Positions 37,080 to 46,963 of a stretch of 64,000 bases of DNA are shown here, piece after piece. The notes beneath the pieces are model-generated. The model saw nothing but the letters and a program-made list of their open reading frames with translations. It ran no database searches and had not been told where the DNA came from. Source of the stretch: Paenarthrobacter sp. GTDB taxonomy: Bacteria > Actinomycetota > Actinomycetes > Actinomycetales > Micrococcaceae. The stretch's first letter is position 1, and each line of letters opens with the position of its first letter. The DNA lies in assembly GCA_031179305.1 (NCBI GenBank), contig JAPSHX010000017.1, positions 1 to 64,000 of the forward strand, given 5' to 3'. A program made the translations under genes and the position numbers.

Positions 37080-37751
37080 ATGGCTGTCACAGATGAGGCG
37101 ATCAGCAAGATCAAAGACATGCTGATCCGCGGCGAACTCAAGGCCGGCGATCGACTTCCGCCGGAAAAGGAACTGAGCGAACGGCTCGGTCTTTCCAGAA
37201 GTTCGTTGCGTGAGGCCGTGAAAGCCCTCGAACTGATCCGCGTGCTGGACGTCCGCCGTGGTGATGGCACCTACGTGACCAGCCTCGACGCGAAGCTCCT
37301 CAACGAAGCCGTCGCCTTTGTGGTGGACCTGCACCAGGACCGGTCCATCCTGGAACTCTTTGAGGTTCGACGAATCCTGGAGCCGGCCACCGCACACTTG
37401 GCGGCGGGCAAAATCACGCCGGACGAGCTCTTGGCCCTGCGGAGCACCATGGACGGCATCGACGAGAACACTGACGTCGAGGAGCTCGTGGCCCATGACC
37501 TGGAATTCCACAGAATCATCGCCGAAGCCGCCGGAAATGACTACCTCGGGAGCCTCTTGGAAGCCCTGTCCAGCAGCACCGTGCGGGCGCGTATATGGCG
37601 TGGCCTGACGCAGGAGAAGGCCGTGGCGCACACCTTGGCTGAACACCGCGCGATCGCGGACGCACTGGAACGGGGCGACGCCGAACTTGTGCGGGCCCTC
37701 GTCACCGTGCACATCAGCGGCGTGGAGAACTGGCTGCGGCTGGCGCTCTAA
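37080..37751 (+). CDS. FadR/GntR family regulator, likely of the fucose cluster
   Basis: IKDMLIRGELKAGDRLPPEKELSERLGLSRSSLREAVKALELIRVLDVRRGDGTYVTS. Confidence 0.88.
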   Translation: MAVTDEAISKIKDMLIRGELKAGDRLPPEKELSERLGLSRSSLREAVKALELIRVLDVRRGDGTYVTSLDAKLLNEAVAFVVDLHQDRSILELFEVRRILEPATAHLAAGKITPDELLALRSTMDGIDENTDVEELVAHDLEFHRIIAEAAGNDYLGSLLEALSSSTVRARIWRGLTQEKAVAHTLAEHRAIADALERGDAELVRALVTVHISGVENWLRLAL

Positions 37752-38617
37752 ATGTCGGTCAGAGGGGCAACTGCCAAGCCATACGTCCGGATGGCGGTCT
37801 CCTCAAGCACCAAGTCCTGGTCCGAGGGGTCCAAGGAAGACACCAGCTCCAGCAGGACATCGAGTGTCCGGCCGTAGGGTGCCCCGAGCGTACTGACCGG
37901 CCAGTCGCCGCCGATCATCAAACGCTCCGGCCCGAAAGCCTCCAACGCTGAATCAAACAGGGGTCGCAATGCATCCGCCGTGTAGTCAACGCCACGCAAA
38001 TGCAGTCCGGAGAGCTTCGCAACGGAGTTAGGCTCCCGCCCGAGCGCCCGAAAGTCAGCGCTCCACGAGTCCATGAGTTCAGGATCAGCCAGCGGCGGCT
38101 TACCCAGGTGATCCAACACAACCGTCAGTTCCGGCATCTCGCGGGCCAGCCGAACCGCGGACCCCAGGTGCCTGGGGAAAGCATCGGGAATGTCCAAGGT
38201 GAGCCCTTCCCTAGCCACTAGCGCCAGGGAATCGCGGACGGCAGGAAGATCCAGAAAGTCATCACGGGGATCATCATGCAGGAGGTGCCGCACACCTTTA
38301 AAGGCGGGCTGAGCTGTGAAGCGGTGCAACTGTTCTGCAGCTTCAGCAGGCGCATCCAAGCTGATCCAACCCACTACTCCGAGCACCCAGGGATTCCGCG
38401 CCGCTACTGCCAACATGCTCTCGGTGTCGGCTACGGTGTCGTCGGCCTGGACCAGCACGGCTCCCCTCACGCCGGCAGCGTCCAACGTCTCGCGCGCCTC
38501 GTCCTCGCCAAAGCTGCGGAAGAGCTCACCGTGTTGCGGTCCGAGCCACGGATAGTGGCGCACACCGCCGGTGACGAAGGAGTCCAAGGTCCACAGGTGC
38601 AGATGCGAATCAATCAC
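37748..38617 (-). CDS. Amidohydrolase, likely L-fuconolactonase; GTG start
   Basis: VIDSHLHLWTLDSF...WLGPQHGELFRSF; IGGDWPVSTLGAPY; cluster context. Confidence 0.85.
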   Translation of the reverse strand: MIDSHLHLWTLDSFVTGGVRHYPWLGPQHGELFRSFGEDEARETLDAAGVRGAVLVQADDTVADTESMLAVAARNPWVLGVVGWISLDAPAEAAEQLHRFTAQPAFKGVRHLLHDDPRDDFLDLPAVRDSLALVAREGLTLDIPDAFPRHLGSAVRLAREMPELTVVLDHLGKPPLADPELMDSWSADFRALGREPNSVAKLSGLHLRGVDYTADALRPLFDSALEAFGPERLMIGGDWPVSTLGAPYGRTLDVLLELVSSLDPSDQDLVLEETAIRTYGLAVAPLTDI

Positions 38618-39558
38618 GTCGGGCGCTCCTCCAACACGTTCCACAGTTCGTCCGGCACGGGCGCTTCCATTCTGGCAGCGTTCGTGGCCACCTGTTCAGG
38701 AGAAGTCGCCCCGGCTGTCACATTCACCACGGCCGGATGCCGCAACGGGAACTGGAGCGCCGCCGTCGGGAGTTCCACGCCGAAGTCCCGGCAGAGGGCC
38801 GCGAGCGCACGCGCGCGCTCCAGCACGTCGCGCGGTGCTTGATCGTAGTTGTAGTGGGCGTCTTCCGGAACGTCGGGTCGGGCCAGGAGGCCCGAGTTGT
38901 AGGCGCCCACACTTACGACGCCGGTGCTTTGCTCCACACAGCGGTCAAGCAGCGGGACGCTGGGCTGCTCAAGCAGGGTGTAGCGGCCGGCCAGCATCAC
39001 GAGGTCGAGATCGGCGGCTTCGACGCATTTCAACGCTGCCTCGGCGGAGTTGATGCCCACGCCGATTGCCCGGACTACTCCCTCAGAGCGCAGCTTCTCG
39101 AGAGCCGGAAGTCCTTGGGAGATTCCGGCCTGAAGATCGTGGACGTCGGGGTCGTGAAGGTAAACGATGTCCACGTGGTCCAAGCCGAGCCGTTCCAAGG
39201 AGTCTTCGATGCTGCGCCGGATGCCTTTTTCGGAGAAGTCCCACACGCGCCGTGACGTCGCTGGGACCTCGAAGCCCTCCGGGTCCTGCCCGCCAACGGA
39301 GTTGGGTTCGAGTAGCCTGCCAACCTTGGTTGAGATGACGAATTCGTTCCGGGGTTTATCACGGAGGACGGCGCCCAATCTTTGCTCGGAGAGGCCCAGA
39401 CCGTAGTGGGGCGCGGTGTCGAAGTAGCGGATGCCCGCGTCCCATGCAGCGAGCACGGTTGCGAGCCCCTCCCCGTCCGGGATCGCCCGGTAGAGATTCC
39501 CGATGCCCGCTCCGCCGAAGCCCAGTTTGCCTAGTTTGCCGGGATCAAGTGAGTTCAT
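38614..39558 (-). CDS. Aldo/keto reductase, likely L-fucose dehydrogenase
   Basis: LGFGGAGIGNLYRAIPDGEGLATVLAAWDAGIRYFDTAPHYGLGLSEQRLGAVL. Confidence 0.85.
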   Translation of the reverse strand: MNSLDPGKLGKLGFGGAGIGNLYRAIPDGEGLATVLAAWDAGIRYFDTAPHYGLGLSEQRLGAVLRDKPRNEFVISTKVGRLLEPNSVGGQDPEGFEVPATSRRVWDFSEKGIRRSIEDSLERLGLDHVDIVYLHDPDVHDLQAGISQGLPALEKLRSEGVVRAIGVGINSAEAALKCVEAADLDLVMLAGRYTLLEQPSVPLLDRCVEQSTGVVSVGAYNSGLLARPDVPEDAHYNYDQAPRDVLERARALAALCRDFGVELPTAALQFPLRHPAVVNVTAGATSPEQVATNAARMEAPVPDELWNVLEERPT

Positions 39559-39869
39559 GGCAGTTCCCATACCTTCTGGATACCCGTATCCTCCCCCGAG
39601 TAATCGTCCTGGACCTCCAAAAGTTCAGCCAATCGGGCTTGCCACGGCACGTTGGCCGGGTGCTTGGCTAGCGCATGCCGCATGGCTTGGTAGTTTTCCA
39701 CGTCCACCACATGGAAAAGATCGAGACCGTTGCGCCAGATTCGCCAGTTCCGGACGCCGGCATCCTTGAGCGCGGCTACCAGCTCAGGGGGAATGTTCGC
39801 GTGCGCGTCGGCGTACTCCTCTTCATTTCCCGGCTTGAGTCTGGTGTGCAGGGCGATGCTCTCAACCAT
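39555..39869 (-). CDS. L-rhamnose/L-fucose mutarotase family protein
   Basis: LHTRLKPGNEEEYADAHANIPPELVAALKDAGVRNWRIWRNGLDLFHVVDVENYQAM. Confidence 0.9.
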   Translation of the reverse strand: MVESIALHTRLKPGNEEEYADAHANIPPELVAALKDAGVRNWRIWRNGLDLFHVVDVENYQAMRHALAKHPANVPWQARLAELLEVQDDYSGEDTGIQKVWELP

Positions 39870-41169
39870 TCACGGCCTCGGGTGTCAGGAACAGCTCCAG
39901 CACCGGAACAGCAACGTTCGGCCGCTGGACAGGCAGCTTGATGGTCAAGGTCCCTGGCGGCTGGCCTCCCTGGGTCATATTCATGGCCTGCTGTCCGGGG
40001 TCTACCTCTTTGAGGAAAACCTCGGACGCGTCGTTCAGCAACTGCGCGTACTCAACTTTTCCGGCGAGGTCCGGGAGGTGCACGTACTCGAATGGCCAAG
40101 CGAACAAGTGAACATAGAGCCTGTCCCTGCGCTGCGTGTACCGGGCGTCCGCGGGTGCCGTGAACAGGGAGGCCCCCGTCCCGTAGATGGCGCGCGAGTG
40201 CAGCTTCATCCACTCGCCGATGCCTTCCAAGGACGTCAAGGCCCGCGGATCGAGGTTTCCCCTGCCTGTGGGGCCGACGTTGAGCAGCAGATTGCCACCC
40301 TTGGATACGCCATCCACGAGCATTCGGATGAGCAGGTCCACGGATTTGTAGTTCAGGTTGTCCCTGTCATAACCCCAACTACCGTTGAGGGTCTGGCAAG
40401 CCTCCCAGGTGACCGGTTCGCCGTCGACCATCATGGGGCCGGCGGGCTGGTACTGCTCGGGAGTGACAAAGTCGCCGGGGATCTCCAACCGGTCATTGAC
40501 CACAATGCCGGGCTGCAGCTCCCGCACCATGGCGAGCAACGCCTCCGAATCCCAGTCCTTCCGGCCCTTGCCACCCCAAAATTCTTGTTCGTGCCCACCT
40601 GTGTAGGAGAAGTCGAAGAACAGGTAGTCGATGGTGCCGTAGTTGCTCAGGAGTTCACGGACCTGGCCGTGCAGGTACTCGCGGTAGCGCGCCATGTCGC
40701 GTCCGGCGTTCAAGCTTTCGACGTCGGCCGTGTTCCGTTGGGGGTGTACGCCGTCCACGGTGAAGTCGGGGTGGTGCCAGTCGATGAGCGAGTGATAGAA
40801 GCCGACCTTCAGTCCCTCGGCCCGGAGTGCTTCCACATAGGGCGCTATCAGGTCTCGGCCGGCGGGCGTGTTGGTGGCCTTGTAATCCGTCAGCGCCGAG
40901 TCCCACAGACAGAAGCCGTCGTGGTGCTTGGTGGTGAGCACCACATACTTCATCCCGGCGCCCCGTGCTGCGCGTGCCCATTCCCGGGGATCATAGAGGT
41001 CCGGGTCGAATCGCTGGAAGTACTTGGAGTACTCCTCCACTGTGATTTCTTCCCTGTTCATCACCCACTCGTGCCGGGCAGGCAGGGCGTAGATGCCCCA
41101 GTGAACGAACATCCCAAAACGTGCCTCTTCAAACCAAGGTGCGTGCTGGATCAACGGGATTCCTTCCAT
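39862..41169 (-). CDS. Alpha-L-fucosidase, GH29
   Basis: [72 protein letters not shown]. Confidence 0.93.
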
Positions 41170-42455
41170 ACGGGGCCGTTCGGAAAGCTGTACGCGGCCA
41201 GTGTTTCACGGAGCATTTCGTTTCCTGCGCCAGGATTCGACGGCGGCCAGTATGCGCCGTCGTGGACGTCCACGGGCGTGACGAAGTGTTCATGGAGGTG
41301 GTCCACGAACTCGATGGTCCTGTTCTCCTTGGTCCCGGACACCGCAATGAAATCAAACATGGATAGGTGCTGCACGGCTTCGCACAGACCGACACCACCG
41401 GCATGCGGACAAACCCTTACCCCGAACTTGGCAGCGAGAAGGAGGATGCTGATGTTCTCATTCACACCCGCTACCCGGGCAGCATCAATTTGCAGGACCT
41501 GAAGCGAACCGGCTTGGAGCATCTGCTTGAACACCACCCGGTTCTGGACGTGTTCGCCGGTGGCCACAGGGATGGGAGCCACTCCGCGGGCGATAGCGGC
41601 ATGACCCAGGATGTCGTCCGGGCTGGTGGGTTCCTCAATCCAGGCGATGTCGTAAGGAGCAAGGTGTGCCATCCAGTCGATGGCTTCCTGCACGTCCCAG
41701 CGCTGATTGGCATCTACCGCGATCCTGACGTCGGGTCCAACGGCAGCGCGGGCGGCCCGCACGCGGCGGATGTCGTCCTCCACGGAGGCGCCAACTTTCA
41801 ACTTGATTTGGGCAAATCCGTCGGCCACGGCTTCCTTGGCCAGCCGCGTCAGTTTGTCGTCGCTGTAACCCAACCAGCCCGGCGTCGTGGTGTACGCGGG
41901 GTAACCCTCAGTGCGAAGTGCCTTTTTGCGCGCTTCCCTTCCGGGTTCGGCGTCGCGGAGGATTTCCAGAGCTTCCTCCGGGGTGAGCGCATCCGTGAGG
42001 TAGCGGAAGTCAACGAGTGCTACGAGCTCATCGGGTGTCATGCCGGCGAGCAACTCCCACAGGGGCAGCCCTGCGCGTTTGGCTTTCAAATCCCACAACG
42101 CATTGACCACGGCGCCGATGGCCATGTGCATGACGCCTTTCTCGGGGCCCAGCCATCTGAGTTGGGAATCGTGTGCCAGCAGCTTCCAGGTTGCACCCAT
42201 GTCATCAAGCAGCGAGTCAACGTCAGCGCCAAGGATGTGATCCCTCAGTGCCCCGATCGCCGCCGTCTCCACTTCGTTGCCCCGCCCGATGGTGAACACA
42301 AAGCCGTGGCCCTCCTGTCCGTCCCCGGCATCCGTGCGAATGATCAGGTATGCGGCGGAATAATCGGGGTCCGGGTTCATGGCGTCGGAGCCGTCCAGTT
42401 CCAATGATGTGGGGAAGCGGATATCGAAGGTATCCAGTGCGGTGATGATGCTCAT
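41151..42455 (-). CDS. L-fuconate dehydratase, enolase superfamily
   Basis: [87 protein letters not shown]. Confidence 0.93.
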
Positions 42456-42495
42456 ACGGCTCCTGAGTTGCGGCAAGGTTCATCAGCGAGCCTAA

Positions 42496-42506
42496 ACATC
42501 CGATGT
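42496..42506. promoter_or_regulatory. Candidate FadR-type operator in the divergent fucose promoter region
   Basis: ACATCCGATGT (5-1-5 palindrome); related sites ACATCCGATCA at 37049 and TCGGATGT at 42563. Confidence 0.55.
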
Positions 42507-42595
42507 CTGCCTTGTCAATGGGTCACATTTCCGTATTATGGGTGACAACACCACACTAGAGCTCGGATGTTAGTCCCGAAAGCACGGAGGAAGCC

Positions 42596-43510
42596 ATGAC
42601 CTTGAAATTCGCCAGGCTGGGTACGGCCGGAAACGAACAACCGGCCGTCATCGCCCAGGACGCCGACGGCGCTGAGAAGTACTTCAGCCTCACGGCCCTG
42701 ACCAACGACATCGACGGCGGTTTCCTCGCCTCGGACGGCATCGAACGCAGCCGCGAAGCCCTGAACAAGGGGGAACTTCCCGAGATCTCGCCTGAAGGCC
42801 TGCGCATCGGCGCCCCCGTCGCCCGACCCGGCGCAGTGGTTGCCATCGGACTCAACTACACCGCGCACGCTGCCGAATCCGGCGCTACGCCGCCCGAGGT
42901 TCCAGTGGTGTTCCTCAAGCCCACCAACACCATCACCGGCCCGTTCGACGCAGCCCCCATCCCGCCGTCGTCGGAAAAGTACGACTGGGAAGTGGAACTC
43001 GCAATCGTGATCGGCAAGGAAGCGTCATACCTTTCCACAGTTGACGAGGCCACAGCCTGCATCGCCGGTTACGCCGTGGCCAACGACCTCTCCGAGCGCG
43101 ACTACCAGATCCCCGGCGCCGCGGGACAGTGGACCAAGGGCAAGACCCTCCCCGGTTCCACTCCCCTGGGCCCATGGCTGGTCCCGTCCGCGGATGTTGA
43201 CGCCGGCAACCTTCGCCTGCAGACCCTGGTCAACGGCGAAAGCCGGCAAGACTCCAATACCTCGGACATGATCTTCGACCCCGCCACGATCGTCCACCAC
43301 CTCAGCCAGTACATGGTCCTGGAACCGGGCGACGTGATCATCACGGGCACCCCCGAGGGCGTTGCACTGTCCGGCAGATTCCCCTTCATCCAGGCCGGTG
43401 ACGTGGTGGAGCTGGAAATTGAGGGACTGGGCCGCCAACGACAGGAATACTTCCGAGCGCAGGCCGGCTCGCGCCCCGGGGCAGCAGCCCCCGTCAGCAT
43501 CAACGCCTGA
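42596..43510 (+). CDS. Fumarylacetoacetate hydrolase family protein, likely 2,4-diketo-3-deoxy-L-fuconate hydrolase
   Basis: GLNYTAHAAESGATPPEVPVVFLKPTNTITGPFD, YDWEVELAIVIGKEA, DVIITGTPEGVAL. Confidence 0.88.
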   Translation: MTLKFARLGTAGNEQPAVIAQDADGAEKYFSLTALTNDIDGGFLASDGIERSREALNKGELPEISPEGLRIGAPVARPGAVVAIGLNYTAHAAESGATPPEVPVVFLKPTNTITGPFDAAPIPPSSEKYDWEVELAIVIGKEASYLSTVDEATACIAGYAVANDLSERDYQIPGAAGQWTKGKTLPGSTPLGPWLVPSADVDAGNLRLQTLVNGESRQDSNTSDMIFDPATIVHHLSQYMVLEPGDVIITGTPEGVALSGRFPFIQAGDVVELEIEGLGRQRQEYFRAQAGSRPGAAAPVSINA

Positions 43511-43517
43511 GGCCGCC

Positions 43518-44279
43518 ATGGCAGCCTCGGTGGGCAACGAGTTCCAAGGCCTGACAGCACTCGTGACCGGCGGCGCCTCCGGAATCGGGGCAGCCATCGC
43601 GGACCGCCTCGCAGCCGGCGGTGCGCAGGTGGCGGTCCTGGACCTCGCCCCGGAAACCAGCCCGCATTTCGGTGTGCAGTGCAATGTGGCCGATGACGCC
43701 TCGGTGCGCACCGCCGTCGAGCACGTAGTAAAGCAGTTCGGCCGCTTGGACATCGTGATCAACAACGCCGGCATCGGCGCCCAAGGCGACATCGCGGCGA
43801 ACCACGACGACGAGTGGCTGCGCGTTCTCAACGTCAATGTGGTGGGAATCGCCCGCGTCAGCCGGGCAGCCTTGCCGCACCTGCGTGAGTCTCCGGCGGC
43901 CGCGATTGTTAACACTTGTTCCATTGCGGCGACGGCCGGGCTTCCGCAGCGTGCCCTGTACTCGGCGTCGAAGGGTGCGGTTTTGTCGTTGACGCTCGCC
44001 ATGGCAGCAGACCATGTCCGTGAGGGGATCCGTGTGAACTGCGTGAATCCCGGCACCGTAGACACCCCCTGGGTTGGCCGGTTGCTCGATTCAGCCGCTG
44101 ACCCCGCAGCCGAGCGCGCCGCCCTCAACAGCCGCCAACCGCACGGGCGGATGGTGGACCCCGCCGAGGTAGCCGGCGCCGTCGCTTATCTGGCGAGTCC
44201 TCTGTCGGGGTCGACGACCGGGACCTCACTGGCGGTCGACGGCGGCATGCAGGGCCTGCGGCTGCGCCCGGCGCAGTAG
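43518..44279 (+). CDS. SDR oxidoreductase, likely 2-keto-3-deoxy-L-fuconate dehydrogenase
   Basis: ALVTGGASGIGAAIADRLAAGGAQVAVLDL, NNAGIG, YSASKGA. Confidence 0.88.
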   Translation: MAASVGNEFQGLTALVTGGASGIGAAIADRLAAGGAQVAVLDLAPETSPHFGVQCNVADDASVRTAVEHVVKQFGRLDIVINNAGIGAQGDIAANHDDEWLRVLNVNVVGIARVSRAALPHLRESPAAAIVNTCSIAATAGLPQRALYSASKGAVLSLTLAMAADHVREGIRVNCVNPGTVDTPWVGRLLDSAADPAAERAALNSRQPHGRMVDPAEVAGAVAYLASPLSGSTTGTSLAVDGGMQGLRLRPAQ

Positions 44280-44388
44280 GCGGTTTTCGTAACGCAACGG
44301 GCCCGCAACCTCCTGCAGCGGTCGTTCGCCTATGCTCAAGTCCAAGAGATCAACGGCGACTCACTTAGCAGACTCAGGAGATACAGCC

Positions 44389-45687
44389 ATGAGCAACTGG
44401 CGCATCAGGGACTTCCATTCGTCCGATTTGGACGGCATCCTGCACCTCTGGGAGTCACTCAAAGCCGATGGCGTGGAGCCCGTCTACGCGTTGTCTGAGG
44501 TACTGGCCTCCTGCGAGAAGGACCACGCCGTAGTGGCCGTCCAGGGCGACCAGGTAGTGGGTGCCGCCGTCGGACGCGCCGCCCATGACCAAGGGTGGAT
44601 CGTTTTCCTGGCCACGCTGACCGAGTTCCGGGGCCGCGGCATCGGCACCTCGCTGCTGTCCGCCGTCGAGAACCGCATGGCCCCGCACGGGCTCAACAAA
44701 CTCTCCGCTCTGATGCCGGAGACCGAAACACGTGTTGAAGCCTTCTTGGGACGCGGGTTCGTGGTGAAGAAAAACCTGCGCTATTTCGAGCGGACCATCC
44801 CGGTACAGCGGCAGGAACTGGAACCGTTGAGCTTGCTGGGCGGACGCATTCTTGCCCGGGACCTGTGGGAGAACGTGGCTGGCATGCGCCGGGAGAAGGA
44901 GCTGCTGGAGCGGCGACTGGTACTTCCTTTGGCCGAGGCTGACCTCGCGGACGAGTACGGCGTGGTCCCGCCCCGGGCAGTAGTCCTTTTCGGCCCTCCG
45001 GGCACCGGCAAAACCACCTTCGCCAAGGCCATCGCATCCAGGCTCGAGTGGCCGTTCGTGGAAGTCTTCCCGTCCCGATTGGCCGCTGACCCCAAGGGCC
45101 TGGCCGGTGCACTACGCGAGACATTCCTGGAAATCGCCGAGCTGGAACACGCCGTGGTCTTCATCGATGAAGTGGAGGAAATCGCGTCGCAGCGCGCCGG
45201 TGATCCACCGTCGCCGCTGCAGGGGGTCACCAACGAACTCCTCAAGATCATCCCGGCTTTCCGCGAACAACCCGGCCGCTTGCTGGTGTGCGCCACGAAC
45301 TTCATCCGGGCCTTGGACACCGCGTTCCTGCGCCACGGCCGGTTCGACTACGTCATCCCCATCGGCCTCCCGGACGTCCACGCCCGCGAAGCCATGTGGC
45401 AGCGATTCATCCCCGCCACCGTGATGGACTCGGTCGACATCGCCCAGCTGGTGGAGCGAACCGAGGGCTTCTCACCCGCGGACATCGAGTTCGCTGCCCG
45501 CAGCGCCTCCCAGCGGGCCCTGGAAAAAGCCGTGTACGACGACGGCGGCTCCGGCCTCGCTCCCAACGGACGTAAAGGGCCGGTCACCCAGGACTACCTC
45601 GATTCCATCTCCGATACCCGCACCACCGTCAGCGCCGAAGTGCACCAGGACTTCCTGGAAGACATCGACGTGTTGGGGCGCGTGTAG
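44389..45687 (+). CDS. GNAT N-acetyltransferase / AAA+ ATPase fusion protein
   Basis: N-terminal GNAT core (LTEFRGRGIGTSLLSAVENRM) fused to AAA+ module (Walker A FGPPGTGKTTFAKA, Walker B AVVFIDEVEEIA, FLRHGRFDYVIPIGLPD). Confidence 0.88.
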   Translation: MSNWRIRDFHSSDLDGILHLWESLKADGVEPVYALSEVLASCEKDHAVVAVQGDQVVGAAVGRAAHDQGWIVFLATLTEFRGRGIGTSLLSAVENRMAPHGLNKLSALMPETETRVEAFLGRGFVVKKNLRYFERTIPVQRQELEPLSLLGGRILARDLWENVAGMRREKELLERRLVLPLAEADLADEYGVVPPRAVVLFGPPGTGKTTFAKAIASRLEWPFVEVFPSRLAADPKGLAGALRETFLEIAELEHAVVFIDEVEEIASQRAGDPPSPLQGVTNELLKIIPAFREQPGRLLVCATNFIRALDTAFLRHGRFDYVIPIGLPDVHAREAMWQRFIPATVMDSVDIAQLVERTEGFSPADIEFAARSASQRALEKAVYDDGGSGLAPNGRKGPVTQDYLDSISDTRTTVSAEVHQDFLEDIDVLGRV

Positions 45688-45718: not shown

Positions 45719-46963
45719 ATGTCCTCGAATCCCCTTCGCCATGCGCTGTCCCGCATGGGCGGCCGCGATCCCCATGAAAAGCACCGCACAGCAACTCCGC
45801 TGGAGCTCTTCTTCGACCTGACCTTTGTTATCGCTTTCGGTGTTGCCGGCAACCAGTTTGCCCATGCTGTCGCAGAGGCGCATTTCTGGCCAGGTCTCCT
45901 CGCCTTCTCGTTCGCCATGTTTGCGGTGATCTGGGCATGGATCAACTTCACCTGGTTCGCCAGCGCCTACGACACCGACGACTGGGTGTTCCGCGTGGTC
46001 ACCATGGTGCAGATGGTGGGTGTCCTCATCCTGGCCATGGGCGTCGAACCGGTGTTCCACTCCATCATCGAGGGCAAGCACGTGGACAACTTCACCATGG
46101 TGCTCGGCTACATCGTCATGCGGGTGGCCCTGATTTTCCAGTGGCTGCGTGCAGCCCGGCAGGATCCCGAACGCCGGGAAACTTGCTTGCGTTACGCGAA
46201 GTACGTGGCGATCGTCCAAGTCGGGTGGGTCGCGGTTCTCCTGATTGACGCGAGCGTCCTCACTACGTTCCTCATGGCAGCTCCTTTGTTCATCATGGAA
46301 ATGGCAGCGCCGTACTTCGCGGAACGCAAGATCCGTACCCCGTGGCACGCGCACCACATTGCGGAAAGGTACGGGCTCCTGGCCATCATCGCCTTAGGTG
46401 AGTGTTTGATTGGTGCAATTGAAACCTTGCGTGCCATCGTGGCCACCCACCAGTGGTCCGTGGATGCCGCCTTGGTTGGATTGAGTGGCACCGGGCTGGC
46501 CTTCGCCATGTGGTGGATCTACTTCATCCTGCCCTCGGGTCCGGCGCTTCACGTCCAGCGGCACCGTTCATGGGTGTTCGGCTACGGTCACATGTTCATC
46601 TTCGCCGCCATCGCCGCAACCGGCGCTGGGCTACACGTTGCTGCCTACTTCATCGATCACGAAGCCCACATTCCTGCGGCCGCCGCGGTGGCCTCCATCG
46701 CCATTCCCATTATTGTTTTCAAGGTCTCGCTCAGCACGCTGTACGGCATCATGCTGGGCCTGGACCGCGAACACTTCTGGAGCTCGGTGCTGGTGGTCCT
46801 TGGCTTGGCTGCAAGTATTGCCATGGCCGCCGCCGGCGCCTCCGTGCCCATCTGCATGCTGGCAATGATGGTGGTCCTGGGCCTGTCCATTGCCTACGAC
46901 GAACGATGCGGGCACAAGGGCCGGGCCGCGGCACTCCGGCGGCTGGAAACCGCCGCGGGCTAA
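45719..46963 (+). CDS. Low temperature requirement protein A (LtrA) family membrane protein
   Basis: RTATPLELFFDLTFVIAFGVAGNQFAHAVAEAHF; multi-TM. Confidence 0.9.
   Translation: MSSNPLRHALSRMGGRDPHEKHRTATPLELFFDLTFVIAFGVAGNQFAHAVAEAHFWPGLLAFSFAMFAVIWAWINFTWFASAYDTDDWVFRVVTMVQMVGVLILAMGVEPVFHSIIEGKHVDNFTMVLGYIVMRVALIFQWLRAARQDPERRETCLRYAKYVAIVQVGWVAVLLIDASVLTTFLMAAPLFIMEMAAPYFAERKIRTPWHAHHIAERYGLLAIIALGECLIGAIETLRAIVATHQWSVDAALVGLSGTGLAFAMWWIYFILPSGPALHVQRHRSWVFGYGHMFIFAAIAATGAGLHVAAYFIDHEAHIPAAAAVASIAIPIIVFKVSLSTLYGIMLGLDREHFWSSVLVVLGLAASIAMAAAGASVPICMLAMMVVLGLSIAYDERCGHKGRAAALRRLETAAG

What the first reader, a model, noticed from the sequence alone, without database searches (positions are those of the whole stretch)
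44389..45687. GNAT acetyltransferase fused to an AAA+ ATPase
A single 432-aa ORF carries a GNAT fold with the R/QxxGxG/A-like loop (RGRGIG), followed by a CDC48/FtsH-like AAA+ domain with intact Walker A/B and no protease domain. Coupling acetylation to a remodelling motor is unusual; it may be an acetylation-targeted unfoldase or a toxin/modifier system.
Basis: partly seen in the sequence, partly recalled or inferred. Interest (0 to 1): 0.65.

Follow-up and report, generated by a model that had tools for sequence, protein, structure and literature searches.

The report
GNAT-headed AAA ATPase of actinobacteria
The gene encodes one real, widely conserved protein that joins an acetyltransferase-like head to a p97-like ATP-driven ring motor; every Arthrobacter-group genome examined carries it, its job is unknown, and the motor rather than the acetyltransferase is the part evolution never lets go.

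Summary
Window 44389-45687 (+) is one 432-aa ORF: GNAT domain (residues 1-134), linker, classical AAA domain plus lid, and a CDC48/Vps4-like C-terminal helix. It is no frameshift artefact. All 61 sampled genomes of the genus carry it, as do 27/198 of the order, 57/395 of the class and 29/397 of the phylum, always as the fusion. NCBI already labels some copies 'bifunctional GNAT family N-acetyltransferase/ATP-binding protein'; I found no paper on it.

The interpretation needs changing. AAA catalytic residues are invariant in 46/46 diverse members. The acetyl-CoA loop (RGRGIG here) is lost in 16/46, with at least four changes on the tree, yet one such head still models as a GNAT. Pore loop 1 lacks the aromatic of threading unfoldases in 45/46. 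There is no protease domain, HbYX tail or conserved partner gene. An 'acetylation-targeted unfoldase' or toxin is therefore not supported. A stand-alone AAA remodelling ring with a GNAT-derived N-domain (adaptor or acyl-CoA sensor, possibly still an enzyme in Arthrobacter) fits best.

New lead: the gene has a genus-conserved promoter repeat, GCAAC-N6-GCAAC (72/81), with the same spacing as one before exaC, acetaldehyde dehydrogenase (29/30). This suggests co-regulation with C2 metabolism.

The parts
44389..45687 (+). GNAT-AAA gene, 432 aa, 47.6 kDa, stop included
44389..44790 (+). GNAT domain, residues 1-134; nearest solved relatives YpeA (2pdo, 4qus, 4qvt)
   Evidence: Pfam; phmmer E 1.4e-7; AF2 secondary structure
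44629..44646 (+). Acetyl-CoA pyrophosphate loop RGRGIG (R/Q-x-x-G-x-G/A), residues 81-86; intact here, lost in 16/46 relatives
44791..44868 (+). Linker, residues 135-160, with nearly invariant LGG
44866..45423 (+). Classical AAA ATPase domain, residues 160-345
44992..45015 (+). Walker A GPPGTGKT, residues 202-209
45082..45099 (+). Pore-loop-1 position, AADPKG, residues 232-237; no aromatic where VCP-like AAA has Y-Y-G or W-V-G
   Evidence: alignment; loop; 45/46 without aromatic
45154..45171 (+). Walker B VVFIDE, residues 256-261
45298..45300 (+). Sensor-1 Asn304
45331..45342 (+). Arginine-finger positions R315 and R318 (RHGRFD)
   Evidence: invariant in 46/46
45424..45528 (+). AAA lid (AAA_lid_3), residues 346-380
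45616..45684 (+). C-terminal helix region (TVS...F..D...GRV), residues 410-432, resembling the CDC48/Vps4 C-terminal helix; not an HbYX tail
   Evidence: resemblance from own knowledge plus weak Vps4_C match in L117
44289..44309 (+). Promoter repeat GTAACGCAACGGGCCCGCAAC (GCAAC-N6-GCAAC)
   Evidence: 72/81 upstream regions of the genus carry GCAAC-N6-GCAAC, shuffled mean 0.02; perfect match in window
44331..44336 (+). TATGCT, -10-like element 21 nt after the second repeat
44376..44380 (+). AGGAG ribosome-binding site, 8 nt before the ATG

Best explanation
It is a stand-alone classical (CDC48-type, single-ring) AAA ATPase in which a GNAT domain has taken the place of the usual N-domain. Inferred mechanism: six subunits form a ring whose ATPase sites are completed by the neighbour's arginine fingers. 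The GNAT heads sit on the N-face and recognise the substrate, or sense acyl-CoA. ATP hydrolysis then remodels or dissociates a protein partner by limited pulling or domain movement rather than processive threading, because the pore lacks the aromatic grip. In the Arthrobacter group the head probably still binds acetyl-CoA and may acetylate the client; in several other lineages it has become a non-consensus, probably non-catalytic adaptor. Shown: architecture, invariant ATPase residues, missing pore aromatic, repeated loss of the CoA loop, retained GNAT fold in one loop-less head, purifying selection, genus-wide presence, conserved promoter. Inferred: hexamer, head as adaptor or sensor, remodelling action, link to C2 metabolism.
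For: Every catalytic AAA position (K208, D260, E261, N304, R315, R318) is invariant in 46/46 members at 39-93% identity. Phmmer and Foldseek place the AAA part next to VCP/p97. AF2 model mean pLDDT 88.7 with both domains folded. The CoA loop is lost in 16/46 rows, at least 4 changes on the AAA tree. One loop-less head (L115) still folds as a GNAT: Foldseek probability 1.00 to many GNATs, including YpeA. Non-catalytic GNAT domains have precedents: the Eis central domain and MshD N-terminal domain are inactive (PMC4964394). dN/dS in Arthrobacter is 0.050 for GNAT and 0.047 for AAA; in loop-less clades GNAT relaxes to 0.18-0.38 while AAA stays at 0.06-0.09, still below 1. Every copy I inspected keeps both domains; the one apparent AAA-only hit is a frameshifted full fusion. 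No HExxH and no HbYX tail in any of 126.
Against: GNATs with atypical loops can still bind acetyl-CoA (AAC(2')-Ic, PseH), so loop loss is not proof of lost activity. p97 D1 grips substrate with non-aromatic Leu-Ala (PMC9098461), so threading is not excluded. Equal constraint on both domains in Arthrobacter is also what a true bifunctional enzyme would show. Oligomer, substrate and activity were not tested. No neighbour conserved beyond close relatives points to a client.
Confidence: 0.48

Rival explanations
1. ATP-driven acetyltransferase: the GNAT is the business end and the AAA ring presents or opens the substrate for acetylation, as the ATPase module of TmcA/NAT10 does for RNA.
For: Intact RGRGIG loop and strong constraint on the GNAT domain in Arthrobacter. 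Precedent: TmcA couples ATP hydrolysis by a helicase module to a GNAT, and a Walker A mutation in Nat10 abolished acetylation (PMC4234376).
Against: The CoA loop is lost in 16/46 members with the ATPase untouched, so acetylation is unlikely to be the common function of the family. No known substrate.
Confidence: 0.27
2. Acetylation-targeted unfoldase: acetylates or recognises clients and threads them, perhaps feeding a separate protease.
For: CDC48-like AAA core and lid.
Against: Pore-loop-1 aromatic absent in 45/46, HbYX tail absent in 126/126, no protease domain and no conserved protease neighbour, and no Mpa-type proteasome ATPase above cut-off in this 82.8% complete genome.
Confidence: 0.1
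3. Acyl-CoA or metabolic sensor ATPase tied to acetaldehyde/acetate metabolism, remodelling an enzyme of C2 metabolism.
For: Same GCAAC-N6-GCAAC promoter repeat as exaC across the genus (72/81 and 29/30). In the genome at hand these are the only two of 17 exact sites that I could show to be promoter sites conserved in the genus. Plasmid copy beside aceA-aceB in one strain.
Against: The repeat is absent before the gene in 39 loci outside the genus and before the plasmid copy. The regulator is unknown. Site counts genome-wide are no higher than the reversed-pattern control.
Confidence: 0.12
4. Toxin, defence or other conflict system.
For: Weak AAA-level similarity to IetA and TRIP13 models in PADLOC; some copies on plasmids.
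Against: The similarity covers only the AAA core. The gene is core in the genus (61/61), with omega about 0.05 and no conserved partner gene.
Confidence: 0.03

Closest known systems
CDC48/VCP/VAT classical AAA unfoldases
   Same: AAA core, start of the domain W-x-x-VAGM, Walker A/B, sensor 1, two arginine-finger positions, lid and C-terminal helix; best sequence and fold match
   Different: One AAA domain instead of two, no CDC48 N-domain, GNAT instead, pore-loop-1 aromatic absent, scores far below the CDC48 family cut-off (118 against 803 bits)
YpeA-type single-domain GNAT acetyltransferases
   Same: Closest solved relatives of the head; same GNAT fold and a consensus CoA loop in the window protein
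   Different: YpeA stands alone; here the GNAT is fused to an AAA motor and often loses the loop
TmcA/NAT10 RNA cytidine acetyltransferases
   Same: ATPase module and GNAT in one polypeptide; ATP hydrolysis needed for acetylation (PMC4234376)
   Different: The ATPase is an RNA-helicase type, the order of domains differs, and no tRNA-binding domain is present here
Multidomain bacterial lysine acetyltransferases (Pat class I)
   Same: GNAT joined to a second domain (PMC6456759)
   Different: Listed partner domains are acyl-CoA synthetase, ACT, cAMP-binding and NADP-binding; no AAA type is listed
NCBI label 'bifunctional GNAT family N-acetyltransferase/ATP-binding protein'
   Same: This is the same family in Rhodococcus and Kitasatospora
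   Different: An annotation name only; no function given

Membership tests
GNAT superfamily (fold) | GNAT profile match above curated cut-off | tested here: met
   PF00583 41.1 bits against 20.7; 43/46 members at E<=0.01
GNAT superfamily (fold) | Q/R-x-x-G-x-G/A acetyl-CoA loop | tested here: met
   RGRGIG in the window protein; not met in 16/46 relatives
GNAT superfamily (fold) | Acetyl-CoA-dependent acyl transfer | not testable with these tools
   No assay possible
Classical AAA ATPases | Walker A/B, sensor-1 Asn, SRH arginine fingers | tested here: met
   Invariant in 46/46
Classical AAA ATPases | Hexamer formation and ATP hydrolysis | not testable with these tools
   Only inferred from conserved arginine fingers
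CDC48/VCP family | Two AAA domains | tested here: not met
   Single AAA domain; TIGR01243 117.7 against 802.65 bits
CDC48/VCP family | Aromatic-hydrophobic-Gly pore loop 1 (KX1X2G, PMC7018516) | tested here: not met
   AADPKG here; aromatic absent in 45/46
FtsH | M41 HExxH protease domain and transmembrane segments | tested here: not met
   HExxH in 0/126; highest 19-residue hydropathy 1.04 in the window protein
Proteasomal ATPases PAN/Mpa | C-terminal HbYX motif | tested here: not met
   Penultimate Tyr in 0/126; PAN profiles 109-126 bits against 500-750
IetA-type anti-phage ATPase | Full-length IteA/IetA profile and adjacent IetS protease | tested here: not met
   96.5 against 510 bits, AAA core only; no conserved partner
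TmcA/NAT10 | RecD-type helicase, GNAT and tRNA-binding domains | tested here: not met
   None of these TmcA domains among the Pfam matches shown
NCBI 'bifunctional GNAT/ATP-binding protein' | End-to-end homology to named members | tested here: met
   About 50% identity over 99% to R. opacus B4 WP_007297117.1

The most novel reading that the evidence does not exclude
An uncharacterised actinobacterial AAA machine whose GNAT head acts as an acyl-CoA or acetylation sensor gating ATP-driven remodelling of a client in C2 (acetaldehyde/acetate) metabolism: a direct coupling of acetyl-CoA status to a p97-like motor, with the head turning into a pure adaptor in some lineages.
Probability: 0.15. Interest if true: 0.8.

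Novelty: new variant of a known kind. Interest (0 to 1): 0.5.

Why it matters
A core gene of a large soil genus, and a patchy one across Actinomycetota, encodes a p97-like motor with an acetyltransferase head and apparently no published function. It gives a natural series, with heads that keep or have lost the CoA loop on an unchanged motor, for testing how N-domains are recruited to AAA rings and whether acetyl-CoA can gate protein remodelling. The shared promoter repeat with exaC offers a concrete condition (ethanol, acetaldehyde, acetate) under which to look for a phenotype.

Tried and rejected
Frameshift or fusion artefact: rejected, 80 end-to-end relatives and 61/61 genomes of the genus. 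Longer start at 44332: rejected, no Shine-Dalgarno site seen before it and it lies in the -10 element. Conserved operon partner: none beyond close relatives. Link to hydrogenase, because two loci lie beside hyp genes: rejected, only 1 of 27 gene-positive genomes of the order has a NiFe hydrogenase. DabA/DabB-SulP neighbourhood (names from own reading of the sequences): shared only among closely similar members. AAA-only paralogue in G726: it is a full fusion split by a frameshift. Viral origin: no viral contig matched, no phage record with the fusion. RamB/PrpR as the regulator: the M. tuberculosis site has a 9-bp period, not 11 (PMC6765138). GlnR/MtrA: the repeat satisfies the M. smegmatis GlnR consensus Gn2AC-n6-GnAAC (PMC3662644), but this is degenerate and no regulator was identified. 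Literature: none of the papers the searches listed concerned a GNAT-AAA fusion.

Full report
Observation. Window 44389-45687 (+) translates without a stop into 432 aa. Pfam finds a GNAT domain (PF00583, residues 37-108, 41.1 bits, cut-off 20.7), an AAA domain (PF00004, 198-326, 85.2 bits) and AAA_lid_3 (348-380). The start at 44389 is backed by an AGGAG site and by conservation of the N-terminus. The upstream alternative at 44332 (451 aa) lies inside a conserved -10-like TATGCT element.

Is it a real family? Yes. A scan of genome contigs returned 80 kept relatives, all in Micrococcaceae, at 84-99% identity over the full length or nearly so, the nearest being Arthrobacter sp. M2012083 and Paenarthrobacter aurescens. 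All 61 sampled genomes of the genus carry it, four with an ORF broken at differing places, which I take for assembly errors. In wider samples it is patchy: 27/198 of the order, 57/395 of the class, 29/397 of the phylum at full or near-full length (counted from the table). In the phylum sample there is a sharp gap between full-length members (E below 1e-85) and unrelated AAA proteins (E about 1e-32 and weaker). In 72,556 plasmid records the N-terminal 191 residues hit 22 records, all Actinomycetota and, as far as listed, the same places as the fusion. No viral contig matched and no phage record held the fusion. An apparent AAA-only paralogue in genome G726 is the same fusion split by a frameshift. 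NCBI annotation already calls some members 'bifunctional GNAT family N-acetyltransferase/ATP-binding protein'.

Anatomy. In an alignment of 46 members (39-93% identity to the window protein) the Walker A lysine, Walker B Asp-Glu, sensor-1 Asn304 and both arginine-finger positions R315 and R318 are invariant, so ring-type ATPase chemistry is expected. Mean column entropy is 1.03 bits for the AAA core, 1.96 for the GNAT and 1.87 for the linker. At the pore-loop-1 position the window has AADPKG where the VCP-like ATPase 5vc7 has SKYYG and SKWVG (alignment); an aromatic is absent in 45/46 members. Pore loop 1 with KX1X2G and aromatic X1 is described as highly conserved in the AAA family (PMC7018516), yet p97 D1 binds substrate with Leu-Ala (PMC9098461), so weak pulling stays possible. 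There is no HExxH and no penultimate tyrosine in 126 members, and no strongly hydrophobic segment in the window protein. AlphaFold2 gives mean pLDDT 88.7 with both domains folded. Foldseek's best PDB matches are p97/VCP for the AAA part. The head's nearest solved relatives by sequence are YpeA structures.

The head changes, the motor does not. The acetyl-CoA loop consensus Q/R-x-x-G-x-G/A (PMC4964394) is intact in the window protein (RGRGIG) but replaced in 16/46 members (HEALG, SENDLT, AEGEIS and others; the count lets a leading His pass, the stricter rule marks more). These losses need at least four changes on a tree built from the AAA part and the C-terminus alone; the tree is a quick one with some long branches. 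A head without the loop (L115) still models as a GNAT (pLDDT 83.9) and matches GNATs with probability 1.00. In Arthrobacter dN/dS is 0.050 for the GNAT and 0.047 for the linker plus AAA; in two loop-less groups the GNAT rises to 0.18 and 0.38 while the AAA stays at 0.09 and 0.06 (Nei-Gojobori, few pairs in the small groups). So the motor is the constant function. The head is important in Arthrobacter and relaxed but retained elsewhere. Caveat: AAC(2')-Ic and PseH have atypical loops and still bind acetyl-CoA.

Context. The window gene follows a cluster that reads like sugar-acid catabolism (SDR, fumarylacetoacetase-like and others, named here from the sequence by eye) and precedes an LtrA-like gene. 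This holds only among close relatives; no neighbour is conserved across the family. Two loci beside hydrogenase maturation genes suggested a link, but only 1 of 27 gene-positive genomes of the order has a NiFe hydrogenase.

Promoter. Upstream of the gene, 72/81 genus loci carry GCAAC-N6-GCAAC (GTAACGCAACGGGCCCGCAAC here, 44289-44309), followed after 21 or 22 nt by TANGCT in 69 of 72 and after 12 nt in two; shuffles give 0.02 loci on average. The conservation persists where the upstream neighbour differs. In the genome at hand the exact repeat occurs 17 times, no more than the reversed control of 21. One other site sits before an acetaldehyde dehydrogenase (ExaC equivalog, 934 bits against a cut-off of 900). 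Across the genus 29 of 30 exaC upstream regions carry the same repeat, with TANGCT 11 nt downstream in 28 of 29, one helical turn closer. The half-site geometry fits OmpR-type regulators and satisfies the M. smegmatis GlnR consensus Gn2AC-n6-GnAAC (PMC3662644), but the regulator is not identified. The repeat is absent before the gene outside the genus and before a plasmid copy.

Mechanism. Best-supported: a single-ring classical AAA ATPase whose N-domain is GNAT-derived, with the head binding a client or acyl-CoA and the ring remodelling a protein partner without strong threading (0.48). Oligomer, ligands, substrates and activities are untested.

Novelty. The architecture is known to annotation pipelines, but no paper in the library searches described it. 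A review of bacterial lysine acetyltransferases lists no AAA partner in the passages read (PMC6456759). I call it a new variant of a known kind: a CDC48-type AAA with an unusual, evolutionarily labile N-domain.

Noticed in passing
window 44289-44336; loci L003-L082 and L231-L260: GCAAC-N6-GCAAC direct repeat shared by the GNAT-AAA gene and exaC across the genus, with spacing to the -10-like element differing by about one helical turn; regulator unknown.
   Followed up: partly
window 37748-44279: Cluster that looks like L-fucose or L-rhamnose type catabolism by sequence (amidohydrolase, aldo/keto reductase, alpha-L-fucosidase-like, enolase-superfamily dehydratase, fumarylacetoacetase-like, SDR), directly upstream; not tested with profiles.
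   Followed up: no
window 45719-46963: Low-temperature-requirement A (LtrA)-like membrane protein gene directly downstream, named by eye; its cluster is retained in 8 of 10 genus loci compared.
   Followed up: partly
L198 3195-4465 (genome G726): Second copy of the family split by a frameshift near the GNAT-AAA junction, perhaps a young pseudogene or an assembly error.
   Followed up: partly
L143 and L174: Two copies lie beside hydrogenase maturation (hyp) genes; no general co-occurrence with NiFe hydrogenase in the order.
   Followed up: yes
L171 (Rhodococcus sp. DK17 plasmid pDK2): Copy between Hsp20 genes and a Dyp peroxidase-encapsulin pair with a universal stress protein nearby.
   Followed up: no
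L169 (Arthrobacter sp. D5-1 plasmid pAD51): Plasmid copy directly after aceA-aceB (glyoxylate shunt), without the chromosomal promoter repeat.
   Followed up: partly
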